Source of the DNA: Candidatus Aminicenantes bacterium
GTDB lineage: Bacteria > Acidobacteriota > Aminicenantia > UBA2199
DNA: 35,754 bases
Reading direction: 5' to 3'
NCBI GenBank assembly: GCA_011049425.1
Contig: DSBM01000155.1
Coordinates: 1 to 35,754, forward strand
A program made the translations under genes and the position numbers. How positions within the stretch are numbered: position 1 is the stretch's first letter; each line of letters starts with the position of its first letter. The notes under the pieces were generated by a model. It saw nothing but the letters and a program-made list of their open reading frames with translations. It was not told the DNA's origin and searched no databases. Below are positions 6,521-19,073 of the stretch, piece by piece.

Positions 6521-7753
6521 GTGCCGCGATCAACGCATAACTACCAGTCCATCTTCTGCGGGATTCTGTTGTTGGCCCTGTCGTCGCTTGCTTTTGCGGC
6601 AACGACCCGGGCAACGCTGAACAACATTCGCTTTTACAATTATCCCGATTACACCCGGGTGGTCCTGGACCTGAGCCGTCCCATGCAAATCCGGGAAAAA
6701 GTACTCCCGGGAAAAGAAGTAACCCGGCTCTATTTTGATCTCACGCCCTGTCGCATGGGGGCGGACTTCCCCAGGGAAAAAGTCCCGGAAATCCCGATCG
6801 ATACGGGAAACCTGAAACGGGTCCGCCTGGGGCAACAAAACGCAGACACCCTGCGGGTGGTTTTTGATTTTTTCCAGATCGGGAGGTATCGCCAATTTTA
6901 CCTGCGCGGACCGGACCGGATCGTCTTCGACATCTATCAGCAACAGCGGGAGATCGCGTCGGCCCCGACTCTCCCTGAAACGAGCGACGGCGGTTATTCT
7001 TTGGCACGGCAACTCGGACTGGGCGTACATCACATCATTGTAGACCCGGGACACGGCGGCAAGGATCCCGGCACCGCGAACCCCCAACTCAAGCTTCAAG
7101 AGAAAAGCATTACCCTGGACATCGCACGCCGGCTCAAACTGCTGCTTGGCGGAAAAGCCGGATTCAAAGTCACCCTGACCCGTGATGACGATCGCTACAT
7201 TTCTTTGGAAGAACGCACCGCGATCGCCAATTCACACAAAGCCGATCTGTTTGTGTCCATCCACCTGAACGCGGCGCCCAACAAAAAAGCCCGAGGGGTG
7301 GAAACCTACTATCTCAGTTTCACCACCGATCCGTGGGCGACCCAGGTGGCTGCCCAGGAAAACGCCGTCAGCACCAAATCGATCGGGGAAATGAAATCTC
7401 TGATCGAAAAAATCATGCAGAACGCGAAAGTAACGGAATCCAAAGCATTGGCCGCGAGCGTGCAGAAAAACCTTGCGGATACGTTGAGAAAACAACACAA
7501 GCAGGTCGCAAATCTGGGTGTAAAAAAGGCGCCTTTTTATGTGCTGGCCGGAGCGGAAATGCCCTCCGTTCTCGTGGAAGCCTCGTTCTTGAGCCACAAA
7601 GACGAAGCGCGGTTGCTGAACACGGATGCGTACCGTGAACAAATCGCCAAAGGCCTTTATGATGGCATCCTGGCCTACATCCACAGCCTGGGAAAAACCG
7701 AACCCGGCGGAGAACACTCACAAACCGCGGCTTCCGTGAACCTGCAACCATGA
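6521..7753 (+). CDS. amiC: Exported N-acetylmuramoyl-L-alanine amidase (AMIN + Amidase_3)
   Basis: Cleaves the amide bond between MurNAc and the peptide stem, as in daughter-cell separation. The 410-residue product has a signal peptide (hydrophobic SIFCGILLLALSSLAFA), an AMIN domain at about residues 30-135 that targets such enzymes to the envelope, and a C-terminal Amidase_3 domain. Zinc ligands are visible as His178 (VDPGHGGKDPG), Glu194 (LQEKSITLD) and His248 (FVSIHLNA), with the catalytic Glu353 in VLVEASFLSH, so it should be active. An insertion between His248 and Glu353 resembles the regulatory helix of AmiB/AmiC-type enzymes. The GTG start has only a weak Shine-Dalgarno site. The stop overlaps the next start (ATGA). 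The symbol denotes the AmiA/B/C family. Confidence 0.88.
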   Translation: MPRSTHNYQSIFCGILLLALSSLAFAATTRATLNNIRFYNYPDYTRVVLDLSRPMQIREKVLPGKEVTRLYFDLTPCRMGADFPREKVPEIPIDTGNLKRVRLGQQNADTLRVVFDFFQIGRYRQFYLRGPDRIVFDIYQQQREIASAPTLPETSDGGYSLARQLGLGVHHIIVDPGHGGKDPGTANPQLKLQEKSITLDIARRLKLLLGGKAGFKVTLTRDDDRYISLEERTAIANSHKADLFVSIHLNAAPNKKARGVETYYLSFTTDPWATQVAAQENAVSTKSIGEMKSLIEKIMQNAKVTESKALAASVQKNLADTLRKQHKQVANLGVKKAPFYVLAGAEMPSVLVEASFLSHKDEARLLNTDAYREQIAKGLYDGILAYIHSLGKTEPGGEHSQTAASVNLQP

Positions 7754-8631
7754 ACGCTCTGTTTTCTCTTGCCGGCATTCCGCAGCGGATCGACTTGATC
7801 AAAACGGTCAGCTGCGGCAACGATTTTCTGCAGCTCGATCTCGAATCCCTTTCGGAAAAGCGGCGTTCCCGTCTGGGGCAATTCGCACACGCGATCTGTG
7901 ACCGGCACAACGGCATGGGAGCCGATGGCTTGGTGGCACGTTGCTCCATTTCTTCCGGAACGTTCGGATTTCAAGTTTTTAACCGCGACGGTCGCGAAGC
8001 CGAGTTGTCCGGGAACGGCATGGCCGGATGCGCCGCGGTCGTTTTCGCTCTGGAGCCCGGACTCAATTCCATCACGCTTCAGACCGCCGTGGGACCCCGC
8101 CGCATCGCCTGCAAACAACGCCGATTCCCCCGGGTGGACATGAGCGTGGAAATCGGCCCGGCTGACTTTGCAAATTATCGACAATTTCCCTTTCTGGATA
8201 AGCGCGCGGGTGGGTACGCTTCCGATGGAATCGATTTCTTCCCGGTGTCCGTCGGCAACCCCCACGCGGTGTGCCTGGTACCATCGGGAATTTCCGAAAA
8301 AGAGATGGTTGAACTGGGGCAACACTTGCAGAGTTCCACCCGCTTCCCGGAAGGGATCAACGTGGAAGTCGTGCGCCCCGGAAATACGCCGGGACACTGG
8401 CATGCCCGCTTCATCGAGCGTGGAGTCGGAATCACGCAATCATCTTCTACGGGGTGCGCAGCCATCTTTGCCGTACTGCACAAACAGCGCCTCGCAGCCC
8501 AAAAAACGGTTATCTTTTCTGCCGGCGCCTCCGGAATCCATGTCGGCGGCAACTTGGACGGAATAACGGTTGAAAACACCACACAAATCGTTTATAAGGG
8601 TGAATATGCGCCGCTCAGCCAAGAAAATTGA
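7750..8631 (+). CDS. DapF-family protein lacking both catalytic cysteines
   Basis: Homologous along its whole 293 residues to diaminopimelate epimerase, which converts LL- to meso-DAP for peptidoglycan and lysine. Recognisable blocks are SCGNDF, CDRHNGMGADG, NRDGREAEL-SGNGMAG, SVGNPHAV, GINVEVV and ERGVGITQ. In active DapF the motif CGNG and the later ACGxG supply two catalytic Cys; here both are Ser (Ser87 and Ser232, codons TCC and TCT). Residues that hold the substrate in DapF (Asn in GNPH, Asn in GINV, the Glu-Arg of ERG) are kept. It may be a diverged enzyme of the same fold (PhzF and hydroxyproline dehydratases also lack one or both Cys) or a slow or inactive epimerase. It starts in a 4-bp overlap with the amidase gene, suggesting a wall-linked role. 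Confidence 0.82.
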   Translation: MNALFSLAGIPQRIDLIKTVSCGNDFLQLDLESLSEKRRSRLGQFAHAICDRHNGMGADGLVARCSISSGTFGFQVFNRDGREAELSGNGMAGCAAVVFALEPGLNSITLQTAVGPRRIACKQRRFPRVDMSVEIGPADFANYRQFPFLDKRAGGYASDGIDFFPVSVGNPHAVCLVPSGISEKEMVELGQHLQSSTRFPEGINVEVVRPGNTPGHWHARFIERGVGITQSSSTGCAAIFAVLHKQRLAAQKTVIFSAGASGIHVGGNLDGITVENTTQIVYKGEYAPLSQEN

Positions 8632-9259
8632 CACTCACATCATCGGTTTGCTACTGATGATTCTGATCGCGTTACCCCTTGCGGCCGACCAGTTGTACAC
8701 CGTGGATGGCAAAGTCTATGACGGAAAATTCGTGGCTTTCAAGTACAGCACCATCTTTTTCAATGTATACAAATTCGGCAAGTTTCATTCCAGCATGCGC
8801 TTTCCCCTCTACCAGGTATGGAAACTGGAGTTCAACGATCCACAGAACGCCAGCCTGGTTTCATCATTTGAAACCGAAGCCAATTACCGCAAATTCCGTC
8901 GCGGCAAGCGCATCAAAAAAATCAGCCTGCCCGCCGATCAACGCTGGGTCAATACGGGCATTCAACTGCAGATCGGCCAGGATATCCTCTTCTCCATTTC
9001 GGGCTCCATTCAGATCGACGACAACACCAAAGTCTTTCAGAACGGCAAGATCTCTCCCAAACTGGACGCCCGCAACCCCATGCCCAATCAACCCGTTGGG
9101 GCCGTGATCGCCAAAATCGGCGCCGACGGCCCGCCTTTCTATGTGGGCGATGACCGCGCACCATTTCACGTCTCCAGGCAGGGTTCGTTGTTTATGGGCA
9201 TCAACGATCACGACTTGTCCGACAACAACGGGGAATTTTCCGTAATTATCTATTATTAA
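8606..9259 (+). CDS. Exported protein with a LecA (PA-IL)-like domain
   Basis: A 217-residue secreted protein. The signal peptide is clear (RRSAKK basic start, then IIGLLLMILIALPLAA). Residues after it form a short beta-rich module (QLYTVDGKVYDGKFVAFKYS). The C-terminal 120 residues follow the LecA/PA-IL pattern: WVNTGIQLQIGQ, PVGAVIAKIG, PFYVGDD and GINDHDLSDNNGEFSV. In LecA the ND and DN residues bind calcium and galactose, so a carbohydrate or envelope-glycan contact is possible; this is inference. The ATG at 8606 is preferred over one at 8570 because AAGGG lies about 7 nt upstream. It overlaps the DapF-like gene by 26 bp and ends the operon. Confidence 0.6.
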   Translation: MRRSAKKIDTHIIGLLLMILIALPLAADQLYTVDGKVYDGKFVAFKYSTIFFNVYKFGKFHSSMRFPLYQVWKLEFNDPQNASLVSSFETEANYRKFRRGKRIKKISLPADQRWVNTGIQLQIGQDILFSISGSIQIDDNTKVFQNGKISPKLDARNPMPNQPVGAVIAKIGADGPPFYVGDDRAPFHVSRQGSLFMGINDHDLSDNNGEFSVIIYY

Positions 9260-16519: not shown

Positions 16520-16614
16520 AGGGAAAGAAGTAACAGCTTACTCTCGCCATTAGCCCTATCTGTGTTTGTAGAAGGTAGAACGCAGAAGGCAGAAAAAACA
16601 TTCCTTGCTTTCTA

Positions 16615-16635
16615 CTTTTCACTTTTCACTTTTCA
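16615..16635. repeat. CTTTTCA heptamer, three tandem units
   Basis: CTTTTCA is repeated exactly three times without spacers. It is part of the gene-free gap upstream of the LptF-LptG gene. Confidence 0.65.
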
Positions 16636-16638
16636 CTC

Positions 16639-16658
16639 GGACGGTTCGCGAACCGCCC
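16639..16658. repeat. GG(A)CG...CGCCC intergenic palindrome
   Basis: GGACGGTTCGCGAACCGCCC is self-complementary at nine of ten pairs, with a perfect 14-bp core CGGTTCGCGAACCG. It has the same size and end design as the palindromes at 9323-9390. Confidence 0.65.
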
Positions 16659-16673
16659 GTACACGTGTCAAAC

Positions 16674-16712
16674 CCTGCCACCTGTCTCCTGCCTTCCTGC
16701 CACCTGTCTCCT
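16674..16712. repeat. Exact 17-bp direct repeat, 22-bp period
   Basis: CCTGCCACCTGTCTCCT occurs at 16674-16690 and again at 16696-16712. This is the third distinct short tandem repeat in the same gap. Confidence 0.7.
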
Positions 16713-16759
16713 CTTTCTCGTATCACAGTTTTTCCCCAAGGGCAAATGTTTCGTCTGCA

Positions 16760-16789
16760 TAGACCCAAAGACCGCGTCTGTGCTATGAT
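16760..16789 (+). promoter_or_regulatory. Sigma70-type promoter giving a leaderless lptF-lptG mRNA
   Basis: TAGACC (16760-16765), 18-nt spacer, TATGAT (16784-16789), then 7 nt to the ATG at 16797. Predicted +1 falls on, or one base before, the start codon. The -35 is weaker than at the other leaderless promoters. Confidence 0.55.
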
Positions 16790-16796
16790 ATCTGCC

Positions 16797-19073
16797 ATGT
16801 GGAAATCCCTGGACCGCTACATCCTCAAAGAAATCGCCTCTCCTTTCCTGATCGGCTTGAGCGTCTACACTTTCACACTGTTGATCAACAACATCATGCT
16901 CCTGTCGCATACATTGGTCGCCAAGGCGGCCAGTACGGCCACTATCCTGAATATCCTTCTCTATCTCCTGCCCGACCTTCTAGCCTTCACCATTCCCATG
17001 TCCACTTTAATGGGAGTACTGGCCGGATTCAGCCGTATGAGCTCGGATTCAGAGACCATTGCCCTGAAAACAATGGGAATCAACAACCGGCGCCTGTTGT
17101 GGCCGGTAATGCTGTTTTGCCTCGGTACCTGGCTGCTCAGCTCCTACCTGATCATGTTCCTGGCGCCTGAAGCCAATTTCCGCCTCAACCGCCTGTTGAC
17201 CCGGGTCAGCGTTTCACGCGCCGTTTCCACCATTAAGCCGCGCACCTTCTACAGGGAACTCCCTTTTGTCACGTTGTACTTTTCCAATATCAACGATGCC
17301 TCCGGCATTTGGGAAAATGTGTTTGTGTACTCTGTGAAATCCGGCGACACGGACAGCGTCATCCTGGCCCCTTCAGGGCGTTTCGTGCATTCCCGGGAAA
17401 ATGATACCAGTCACCTGCTTTTGCAGAATGCCCGGGTGCACAGCTACAAACGCAACAACCCGGAGGAAACCTACTCCCTTACGCATTACAGTCTGCTCAA
17501 GGAAGATGTCTCTTCACGGGTAGAGATGAACTTCGCGCGCAAAAGTCACCAATTGGTTTTTCCGGAGTTGTTGAAACGCAAGCAAAAGAAGCCCGACGAC
17601 ATCCTTTTGGGCATGGAATTGCACAACAAGTTTGCCCTGCCTTTTACCTGCCTGCTTTTCGGCGTACTCGGACTTTCCCTGGGTTTGTCCACGCAGAAAG
17701 GCGGCAAAATCAGTGGATTTATCCTTTCCCTCGTCATTATTTTTGTCTACTATACCATCAGTACAGCAGCCCGCAGTCTCATTCTGAAAGAGACCCTGTC
17801 TCCGGGAGTGGGAATGTGGACCGCCAACATCTTTCTGATCATTATCGGGGTATTGCTTTTCCAGCTGAACTCGCGCGAACGCAATCTGCCACGGGTTTTT
17901 AAAAGAAAAGCATCCGTCCGCAAAAACAAGCAACAAAGGCAAAGCCGCAAACCCTTCCTGGTCGTCACCGTCCAGGCGTTCAGGCTCCGGCTGCTAAAAC
18001 GCATCGACCACTACGTGTCGCGGCGCATCCTGCTGACCTTTTTGCTGACTTACGTCTCTTTAATGCTGGTTTTCTTTATCATCGGCATCGTGGAACTCGT
18101 AGACGACGTGGTGGACAACGGCGTGCCATTCTACTACACGCTGCAATACGTCATTTACAACGCCCCCAGCGTTTCTGCGTTCACCATTCCCGTTTCCCTG
18201 CTGACCGCCGTGCTGCTCAGCTATTCCTGGATGAGCAAAAACAACGAAATCACCGCCATACAGATCAGCGGCACCAGCCTGCACCGCCTTGCTTTGCCGG
18301 CATTGTGGATCGGCATGCTTTTTTCCGTGGCGGCCTTTTTCCTGCAGGAAAGAATCACCCCCGACGCCAACCGGCGGGCGGAGGAAACCCTCAACATCAT
18401 TCACAAGCGTGAAAATCCGACCCTGAAGGAACGAGAGAAAAACTGGGTGGAGAGTAAAGACAACACTTTTTATTTCTACAACCATCTGAACCAACGCACA
18501 CAGGTCATTCATCAATTCAATATGCTGAAACTGGATCCGAACTTTAAGATGGGGAAGCGGGTGTTCGCCAAAACAGCCGCCTGGGTTGGCGAAAAGCGCC
18601 TGCAATTGACGGACGGCTTCCAGCGCCGTTTCCAGGAAGGCACTCCCGCCGATTTCTCGGCTTTTGAATCCCTGGAACTGCCGGTACCGGAGGGCCGCGA
18701 TTTCTTTTTTCACAAAGTGGCCTACACCCAACACATGAACATCCGCGAACTTCGGAACTACATCCATTATCTGGAGGAAAACCGCTCGGACACCCAGCGA
18801 TTCCGGGCGGAACTGTTCCAGAAGTACGCGTTCCCTTTTTCCAGCTTGATCATGGTGTTGATCGCCATTCCCTTTTCATTTATGATGGGCAGCAAGGGAA
18901 CGTTATATGGGATCGGCATTGCTGTGGGATTTTCCATGATTTTCTGGGGTATCGTTGGCATGTTCAACTCACTGGGCACGGCCACCCTGCTTTCTCCGGC
19001 CCTTTCCGCTTTCGCACCGTTGATTCTTTTCGCGGCTCTGTCCATGGGATTGTTCCTGCAAGTGAGAACGTAA
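16797..19073 (+). CDS. LptF-LptG single-chain fusion, lipopolysaccharide export permease
   Basis: LptF and LptG normally are two proteins of about 360 residues that, with LptB2, lift LPS from the inner membrane to the periplasmic bridge. Here one 758-residue chain carries both YjgP/YjgQ units. Unit 1 begins WKSLDRYILKEIASPFLIG and has membrane helices around residues 15-110 and 270-365, flanking a periplasmic beta-jellyroll region. Unit 2 begins near residue 400 (LLKRIDHYVSRRILLTFLL) and repeats the pattern to the C terminus. A basic linker (KRKASVRKNKQQRQSRK) joins them. The reading frame is open upstream, but ATG 16797 is preferred: it matches the family N terminus and the promoter +1. lptB and lptC are not in the window. 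Confidence 0.85.
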   Translation: MWKSLDRYILKEIASPFLIGLSVYTFTLLINNIMLLSHTLVAKAASTATILNILLYLLPDLLAFTIPMSTLMGVLAGFSRMSSDSETIALKTMGINNRRLLWPVMLFCLGTWLLSSYLIMFLAPEANFRLNRLLTRVSVSRAVSTIKPRTFYRELPFVTLYFSNINDASGIWENVFVYSVKSGDTDSVILAPSGRFVHSRENDTSHLLLQNARVHSYKRNNPEETYSLTHYSLLKEDVSSRVEMNFARKSHQLVFPELLKRKQKKPDDILLGMELHNKFALPFTCLLFGVLGLSLGLSTQKGGKISGFILSLVIIFVYYTISTAARSLILKETLSPGVGMWTANIFLIIIGVLLFQLNSRERNLPRVFKRKASVRKNKQQRQSRKPFLVVTVQAFRLRLLKRIDHYVSRRILLTFLLTYVSLMLVFFIIGIVELVDDVVDNGVPFYYTLQYVIYNAPSVSAFTIPVSLLTAVLLSYSWMSKNNEITAIQISGTSLHRLALPALWIGMLFSVAAFFLQERITPDANRRAEETLNIIHKRENPTLKEREKNWVESKDNTFYFYNHLNQRTQVIHQFNMLKLDPNFKMGKRVFAKTAAWVGEKRLQLTDGFQRRFQEGTPADFSAFESLELPVPEGRDFFFHKVAYTQHMNIRELRNYIHYLEENRSDTQRFRAELFQKYAFPFSSLIMVLIAIPFSFMMGSKGTLYGIGIAVGFSMIFWGIVGMFNSLGTATLLSPALSAFAPLILFAALSMGLFLQVRT

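What the first reader, a model, noticed from the sequence alone, without database searches (positions are those of the whole stretch)
7750..8631. DapF homologue with Ser at both catalytic Cys positions
The two motifs that carry the acid/base cysteines of diaminopimelate epimerase read SGNGMAG (Ser87) and QSSSTG (Ser232). Substrate-binding Asn, Glu and Arg residues (GNPH, GINV, ERG) are kept and the frame is intact. Paired loss with a preserved pocket suggests a changed reaction (dehydration, a different racemisation, or a PhzF-like isomerisation) or a sensor role rather than decay. It is coupled to a peptidoglycan amidase.
Basis: partly seen in the sequence, partly recalled or inferred. Interest (0 to 1): 0.6.

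Follow-up and report, generated by a model that had tools for sequence, protein, structure and literature searches.

The report
Cysteine-free DapF conserved across Acidobacteriota
A cell-wall enzyme that textbooks say needs two cysteines has serines in both places here, and the same swap turns out to be ancient and widespread in a whole bacterial phylum, where it is often the only enzyme available for the job.

Summary
ORF 7750-8631 is a full-length DapF homologue with Ser87 and Ser232 at the two catalytic Cys positions, and the genome holds no other DapF. It is not a local oddity. The window is from a Candidatus Aminicenantes MAG (class Aminicenantia, Acidobacteriota). In 106 sequence-checked orthologues (66 Aminicenantia, 40 from the rest of the phylum) every one is Ser/Ser. 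None is mixed, although Cys is one base away. The Ser/Ser proteins fall into one clade. The residues that hold the substrate's two amino-acid ends are kept. Outside Aminicenantia, 30 sampled genomes have DapB, no meso-DAP dehydrogenase, and this Ser/Ser protein as their only DapF: there it is the only visible candidate for the DAP epimerase. So a conserved serine variant of DapF is more likely than a lost or repurposed enzyme. The window's own family is less clear: it has mostly lost DapA, DapB and LysA, sits on a long branch and carries extra active-site changes, but keeps MurE with the DNPR motif and a coupled PG amidase. There the substrate may be salvaged DAP, lanthionine or something else. 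No activity has been shown; catalysis by serines is an inference.

The parts
7750..8631 (+). Ser/Ser DapF homologue, 293 aa, the only DapF-family gene in the genome
8008..8010 (+). codon TCC of Ser87, at the position of the first catalytic Cys (motif SGNGMAG)
8443..8445 (+). codon TCT of Ser232, at the position of the second catalytic Cys (motif QSSSTG)
6521..7753 (+). exported N-acetylmuramoyl-L-alanine amidase (AMIN + Amidase_3); its stop overlaps the dapF start (ATGA); a homologous gene is directly upstream of dapF in most Aminicenantia loci examined
8605..9259 (+). small exported protein of unknown function, no family; overlaps the end of dapF; conserved downstream in the window's family (cluster c7)
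   Evidence: the start codon at 8605 is a reading of the sequence

Best explanation
This is a member of an ancient Acidobacteriota lineage of diaminopimelate epimerase in which both acid/base cysteines are serines. The most likely working is unchanged in outline: a DAP-like substrate is held by both amino-acid ends in the DapF cleft, and its alpha-carbon proton is exchanged between two residues at the tips of two helices, here Ser87 and Ser232 instead of Cys. In Acidobacteriota with DapB it most likely makes meso-DAP from LL-DAP. In the window's own family, which mostly no longer makes DAP precursors or lysine by this route, it most likely acts on salvaged DAP or on a close analogue such as lanthionine, feeding MurE. 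Shown: the Ser/Ser pair, its conservation, single-copy status, pocket conservation and pathway context. Inferred: that it is catalytically active, that it epimerises, that the serines do the proton transfer, and the substrate.
For: Ser/Ser in 106 of 106 complete non-Cys sequences, no mixed pair; codons are TCN plus three AGC, each class one base from Cys, so serine is actively kept. One clade on the best tree (p-AU 0.79 with the clade held). Substrate-contact residues named for Anabaena DapF (PMC12039745) are conserved: N24, N78, N204 in 115/115, E223 and R224 in 114/114, N170 in 107/115. 31 of 40 sampled Ser/Ser genomes outside Aminicenantia have DapB, and 30 of these 31 have exactly one DapF-family match; meso-DAP dehydrogenase is in 2 of 297 genomes. 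The profile would have seen a Cys-type DapF (it finds 1gqz DapF at 1e-70). In one family (f18) the gene neighbours LD-carboxypeptidase and Mpl, the meso-DAP-tripeptide ligase (467 bits, cut-off 388.7). In Aminicenantia it follows a PG amidase and MurE has the DNPR motif. In genus g12, G059, G064, G071 and G084 have only a Cys/Cys DapF while G036, G053 and G077 have only the Ser/Ser one, as if one replaces the other. Precedent in the same fold: a 4-hydroxyproline epimerase with a Ser/Cys pair is active (PMC4113996).
Against: No activity data. In Cys enzymes a single Cys-to-Ser change is used because it hinders catalysis (PMC12039745, PMC11602996), and Ser is harder to ionise than Cys (PMC8142540). 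The Cys-free precedent in the fold (Ser/Thr) is a dehydratase, not an epimerase. DapF presence does not follow DapB: a DapF match is found in 167 of 170 DapB+ and 123 of 127 DapB- genomes, so a biosynthetic role is not demonstrated. No Aminicenantia genome of 119 has DapB, and the own genome lacks DapA and LysA too. E. coli survives without dapF (own knowledge), so one cannot assume that every DapB+ genome needs one.
Confidence: 0.55

Rival explanations
1. The Ser/Ser protein catalyses a different reaction on a DAP-like amino acid, such as alpha,beta-elimination (dehydration of a beta-hydroxy-DAP, or cleavage of lanthionine), with one serine as base; another, unrecognised enzyme makes meso-DAP in these bacteria.
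For: The Cys-free pair reported in the fold, Ser90/Thr256, belongs to a trans-3-hydroxyproline dehydratase (PMC4113996). DapF and mutant glutamate racemases readily do eliminations (PMC8142540). The gene is kept in genomes without DapB.
Against: Would require an unknown DAP epimerase in the many DapB+ genomes that have only this DapF and no meso-DAP dehydrogenase. The distal DAP-binding residues are kept.
Confidence: 0.18
2. The phylum enzyme is a DAP epimerase but the window's family (f1) has changed function: the gene is an orphan of the DAP/lysine pathway, with a new amino-acid substrate, as in F. nucleatum HisR, or a role in PG turnover with the amidase.
For: Own genome lacks DapA, DapB, Ddh and LysA. 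f1 has a stem of 1.45 changes per site, and f1-wide changes next to the catalytic sites: Arg to Ala at 92 and Gly to Ser at 233. dN/dS is higher in f1 pairs (0.16-0.29) than in two other Aminicenantia pairs (0.06-0.09). F. nucleatum DapF, also without a DAP pathway, is a histidine racemase (PMC11602996).
Against: MurE with DNPR is kept, so a DAP-like residue is still expected, and the distal-end binding residues are kept. Higher dN/dS may only mean weaker constraint.
Confidence: 0.17
3. Catalytically dead DapF that binds DAP or a muropeptide and acts as a sensor or scaffold.
For: Both acid/base residues are replaced; conserved link with a PG amidase.
Against: A dead enzyme would not be expected to keep serine without exception at both positions in 106 sequences. 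No fused regulatory domain; it would leave DapB+ genomes without any visible epimerase.
Confidence: 0.08
4. Artefact: misaligned motifs, sequencing error or a decaying copy.
For: None found.
Against: Unambiguous alignment to five solved DapFs, same residues across the phylum, purifying selection, no second copy.
Confidence: 0.01

Closest known systems
Diaminopimelate epimerase DapF (TIGR00652, PF01678)
   Same: Length, two-domain homology, substrate-contact residues, curated equivalog score passed by the window protein (125 bits) and by four other Acidobacteriota members (191-250 bits)
   Different: Both catalytic Cys replaced by Ser; all nine named DapF-family rows used as outgroups, including E. 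coli, have Cys at the first site and eight of nine also at the second
Proline racemase superfamily with Ser/Cys (4HypE) or Ser/Thr (t3HypD) pairs (PMC4113996)
   Same: Related fold (established knowledge); natural replacement of catalytic Cys by hydroxyl residues
   Different: Different family (not hit), different substrates; a Ser/Ser pair is not reported in the passages read
F. nucleatum histidine racemase HisR and S. aureus CntK (PMC11602996)
   Same: HisR is a DapF-family protein in a host without a DAP pathway, like the window's genome
   Different: They keep both Cys; the window protein keeps the DAP-type distal pocket
Cyanobacterial and plant DapF that also accept lanthionine (PMC12039745)
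   Same: Gly at the position of H. influenzae Gln44 (window Gly60)
   Different: Cys/Cys enzymes with proven activity

Membership tests
DapF (TIGR00652 / PF01678) | score above the curated cut-offs | tested here: met
   125.2 bits vs 114.65; PF01678 101.9 vs 34.7
DapF (TIGR00652 / PF01678) | residues contacting both ends of DAP (Anabaena N13, N66, N164, N197, E215, R216) | tested here: met
   N24, N78, N170, N204, E223, R224
DapF (TIGR00652 / PF01678) | two catalytic cysteines | tested here: not met
   Ser87 and Ser232; Ser/Ser in 106 orthologues
DapF (TIGR00652 / PF01678) | epimerisation of LL-DAP to meso-DAP | not testable with these tools
   needs an assay
DapF (TIGR00652 / PF01678) | companion DAP pathway in the genome | tested here: not met
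   own genome: no DapA, DapB, Ddh or LysA match; MurE with DNPR present; but DapB is present in 31 of 40 sampled Ser/Ser genomes outside the class
PhzF (PF02567) | match to the PhzF profile | tested here: not met
   only PF01678 found at E up to 1
Proline racemase / hydroxyproline epimerase (PF05544) | match to the proline racemase profile | tested here: not met
   only PF01678 found at E up to 1
Histidine racemase (HisR/CntK) | two catalytic Cys | tested here: not met
   Ser/Ser; histidine activity not testable here

The most novel reading that the evidence does not exclude
A whole phylum uses a cysteine-free DAP epimerase in which two serines do the 1,1-proton transfer that the field attributes to a thiol/thiolate pair, so the two-cysteine requirement of this enzyme class is not general.
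Probability: 0.45. Interest if true: 0.78.

Novelty: new variant of a known kind. Interest (0 to 1): 0.56.

Why it matters
Cofactor-independent racemases of this fold are explained by a cysteine thiol/thiolate pair, and DapF inhibitors such as aziDAP work by alkylating those cysteines. A natural, widespread Ser/Ser DapF would show that hydroxyl residues can do the same chemistry, or would reveal a different reaction hidden under a confident 'DapF' annotation (the curated model passes all five tested members). It also exposes a gap: Aminicenantia seem unable to make DAP by the known route yet keep MurE of the DAP type. A single purified enzyme and a standard D2O exchange assay would decide.

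Tried and rejected
Second Cys-type dapF in the same genome: none. Bypass by meso-DAP dehydrogenase: absent. The weak DapB hits in 18 Aminicenantia genomes cover only about the N-terminal 100-180 positions of the model and lie below the cut-off; two inspected ones sit beside an aminotransferase-like gene and are probably other dehydrogenases, not DapB. A ~780-aa ORF hit by the LL-DAP aminotransferase model scores best as aspartate transaminase and is below the DapL cut-off. LysA hits exist over the cut-off in 41 genomes but not in the own genome. A viral-contig scan found only two distant Cys-type fragments. Literature searches for Aminicenantes with lysine or peptidoglycan, and for DapF in Acidobacteria, found nothing on point.

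Full report
What is there. ORF 7750-8631 (+) encodes 293 aa and is the only DapF-family gene in this 96%-complete genome. It passes the curated DapF equivalog model (125.2 bits, cut-off 114.65) and aligns over most of its length with solved DapFs. Ser87 and Ser232 lie at the two catalytic Cys. The nearest relative outside is in a Candidatus Aminicenantes MAG (72-73% identity), and the genome search places that genome in the same genus group as the window; in GTDB terms the phylum is Acidobacteriota (own knowledge of that taxonomy).

How far it extends. Of 119 genomes of the class, 112 have a match to the protein. In every sequence-checked orthologue both positions are Ser. A minority of genomes carry a separate Cys/Cys protein: G002, G059, G064, G071 and G084 as their only copy found, G072 and G095 beside a Ser/Ser copy. 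Of 297 genomes of the phylum, 290 have a DapF match. I fetched 40 of the better-scoring non-Aminicenantia ones from many families: all are Ser/Ser, with motifs such as SGNGTRC and SSGTGS. These 40 are high-scoring matches to a mostly Ser/Ser profile, so they over-represent Ser/Ser; lower-scoring ones, for example in family f32, may be Cys-type and were not read. In all, 106 complete sequences are Ser/Ser, 8 are Cys/Cys, none is mixed. Ser codons are TCN, with three AGC at the first site; both classes are one base from a Cys codon, so the absence of Cys points to selection for serine.

Origin. A tree of 99 sequences with the catalytic columns left out puts the Ser/Ser sequences together apart from long-branch rows. 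After removal of two long plasmid rows, the best tree holds all 83 Ser/Ser sequences as one clade (p-AU 0.79). The window's family f1 sits on a stem of 1.45 changes per site. It has two further family-wide changes beside the catalytic residues: the Arg of GNGxR is Ala, and the Gly after the second catalytic residue is Ser. Pairs within f1 have dN/dS of about 0.16-0.29, against about 0.06-0.09 in two other Aminicenantia pairs. The gene is under selection but less tightly.

Pocket. The residues that hold the proximal amine and the distal amino-acid end of DAP in Anabaena DapF (N13, N66, N164, N197, E215, R216; PMC12039745) correspond to N24, N78, N170, N204, E223 and R224 and are nearly invariant. 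Gly60 stands where H. influenzae has Gln44; that paper suggests that Gln44 limits lanthionine use. So the substrate is still likely to be a double-ended amino acid such as DAP or lanthionine.

Pathway context. In the phylum sample, DapB is in 170 of 297 genomes and meso-DAP dehydrogenase in two. Of the 40 sampled Ser/Ser genomes, 31 have DapB, and 30 of these have one DapF-family match only. In those the Ser/Ser protein is the only visible DAP epimerase. In family f18 the gene is beside an LD-carboxypeptidase and/or Mpl in five of six loci, both enzymes of meso-DAP peptide recycling. Against a purely biosynthetic role, DapF is about as common without DapB (123 of 127) as with it (167 of 170). 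In Aminicenantia no genome of 119 has DapB or meso-DAP dehydrogenase, LysA is over its cut-off in 41, and MurE is matched in 118 of 119, with the DNPR motif in nearly all inspected. The own genome has MurE (DNPR) but no DapA, DapB, Ddh or LysA. DAP salvage is therefore likely in the class; DAP in the environment is used by marine bacteria through LysA (PMC9602339). An amidase with AMIN and Amidase_3 domains overlaps the start of the window gene, and its homologue lies upstream of dapF across the class.

How it may work. Precedent for hydroxyl residues in this fold: a 4-hydroxyproline epimerase with Ser93/Cys255 is active, and a trans-3-hydroxyproline dehydratase has Ser90/Thr256 (PMC4113996). 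Thus a Ser can serve as one of two acid/base residues in an epimerase, while the Cys-free pair reported there supports elimination. Cys-to-Ser mutants of DapF-like enzymes are used in crystallography because they hinder catalysis. A Ser/Ser epimerase is therefore chemically surprising but, on the genomic evidence, the best single reading for the phylum. I put it at 0.55; changed reaction 0.18; changed function only in the window's family 0.17; binding protein 0.08.

Novelty. The family is known and public models name these proteins DapF; I found no report of the Ser/Ser pair in the library searched, which lacks most subscription journals. I rate it a new variant of a known kind.

Noticed in passing
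class Aminicenantia, 119 genomes: No DapB (TIGR00036 over cut-off, PF05173) and no meso-DAP dehydrogenase in any genome, yet MurE with the DNPR motif is nearly universal and LysA is present in many: the source of DAP is unexplained.
   Followed up: partly
L087, L090, L091, L092 (genus g12: G084, G064, G071, G059): These genomes have only a Cys/Cys DapF, with no amidase homologue in the fetched stretch, while sister genomes of the genus have only the Ser/Ser one.
   Followed up: partly
L252:289-1089: A plasmid-borne Sphingomonas morindae DapF has a CGSATR first motif and a GSGSCS second motif, an apparent natural Cys/Ser pair.
   Followed up: no
L154:2260-4602 and many class genomes: A ~780-aa protein with an aspartate-aminotransferase-like N-terminal half; the second half was not identified.
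   Followed up: no
window 16605-19073: One 822-aa ORF carries two LptF_LptG domains, apparently a fused LptF-LptG permease.
   Followed up: no
window 8605-9259: Exported protein without any known family, conserved directly downstream of dapF in the window's family.
   Followed up: no
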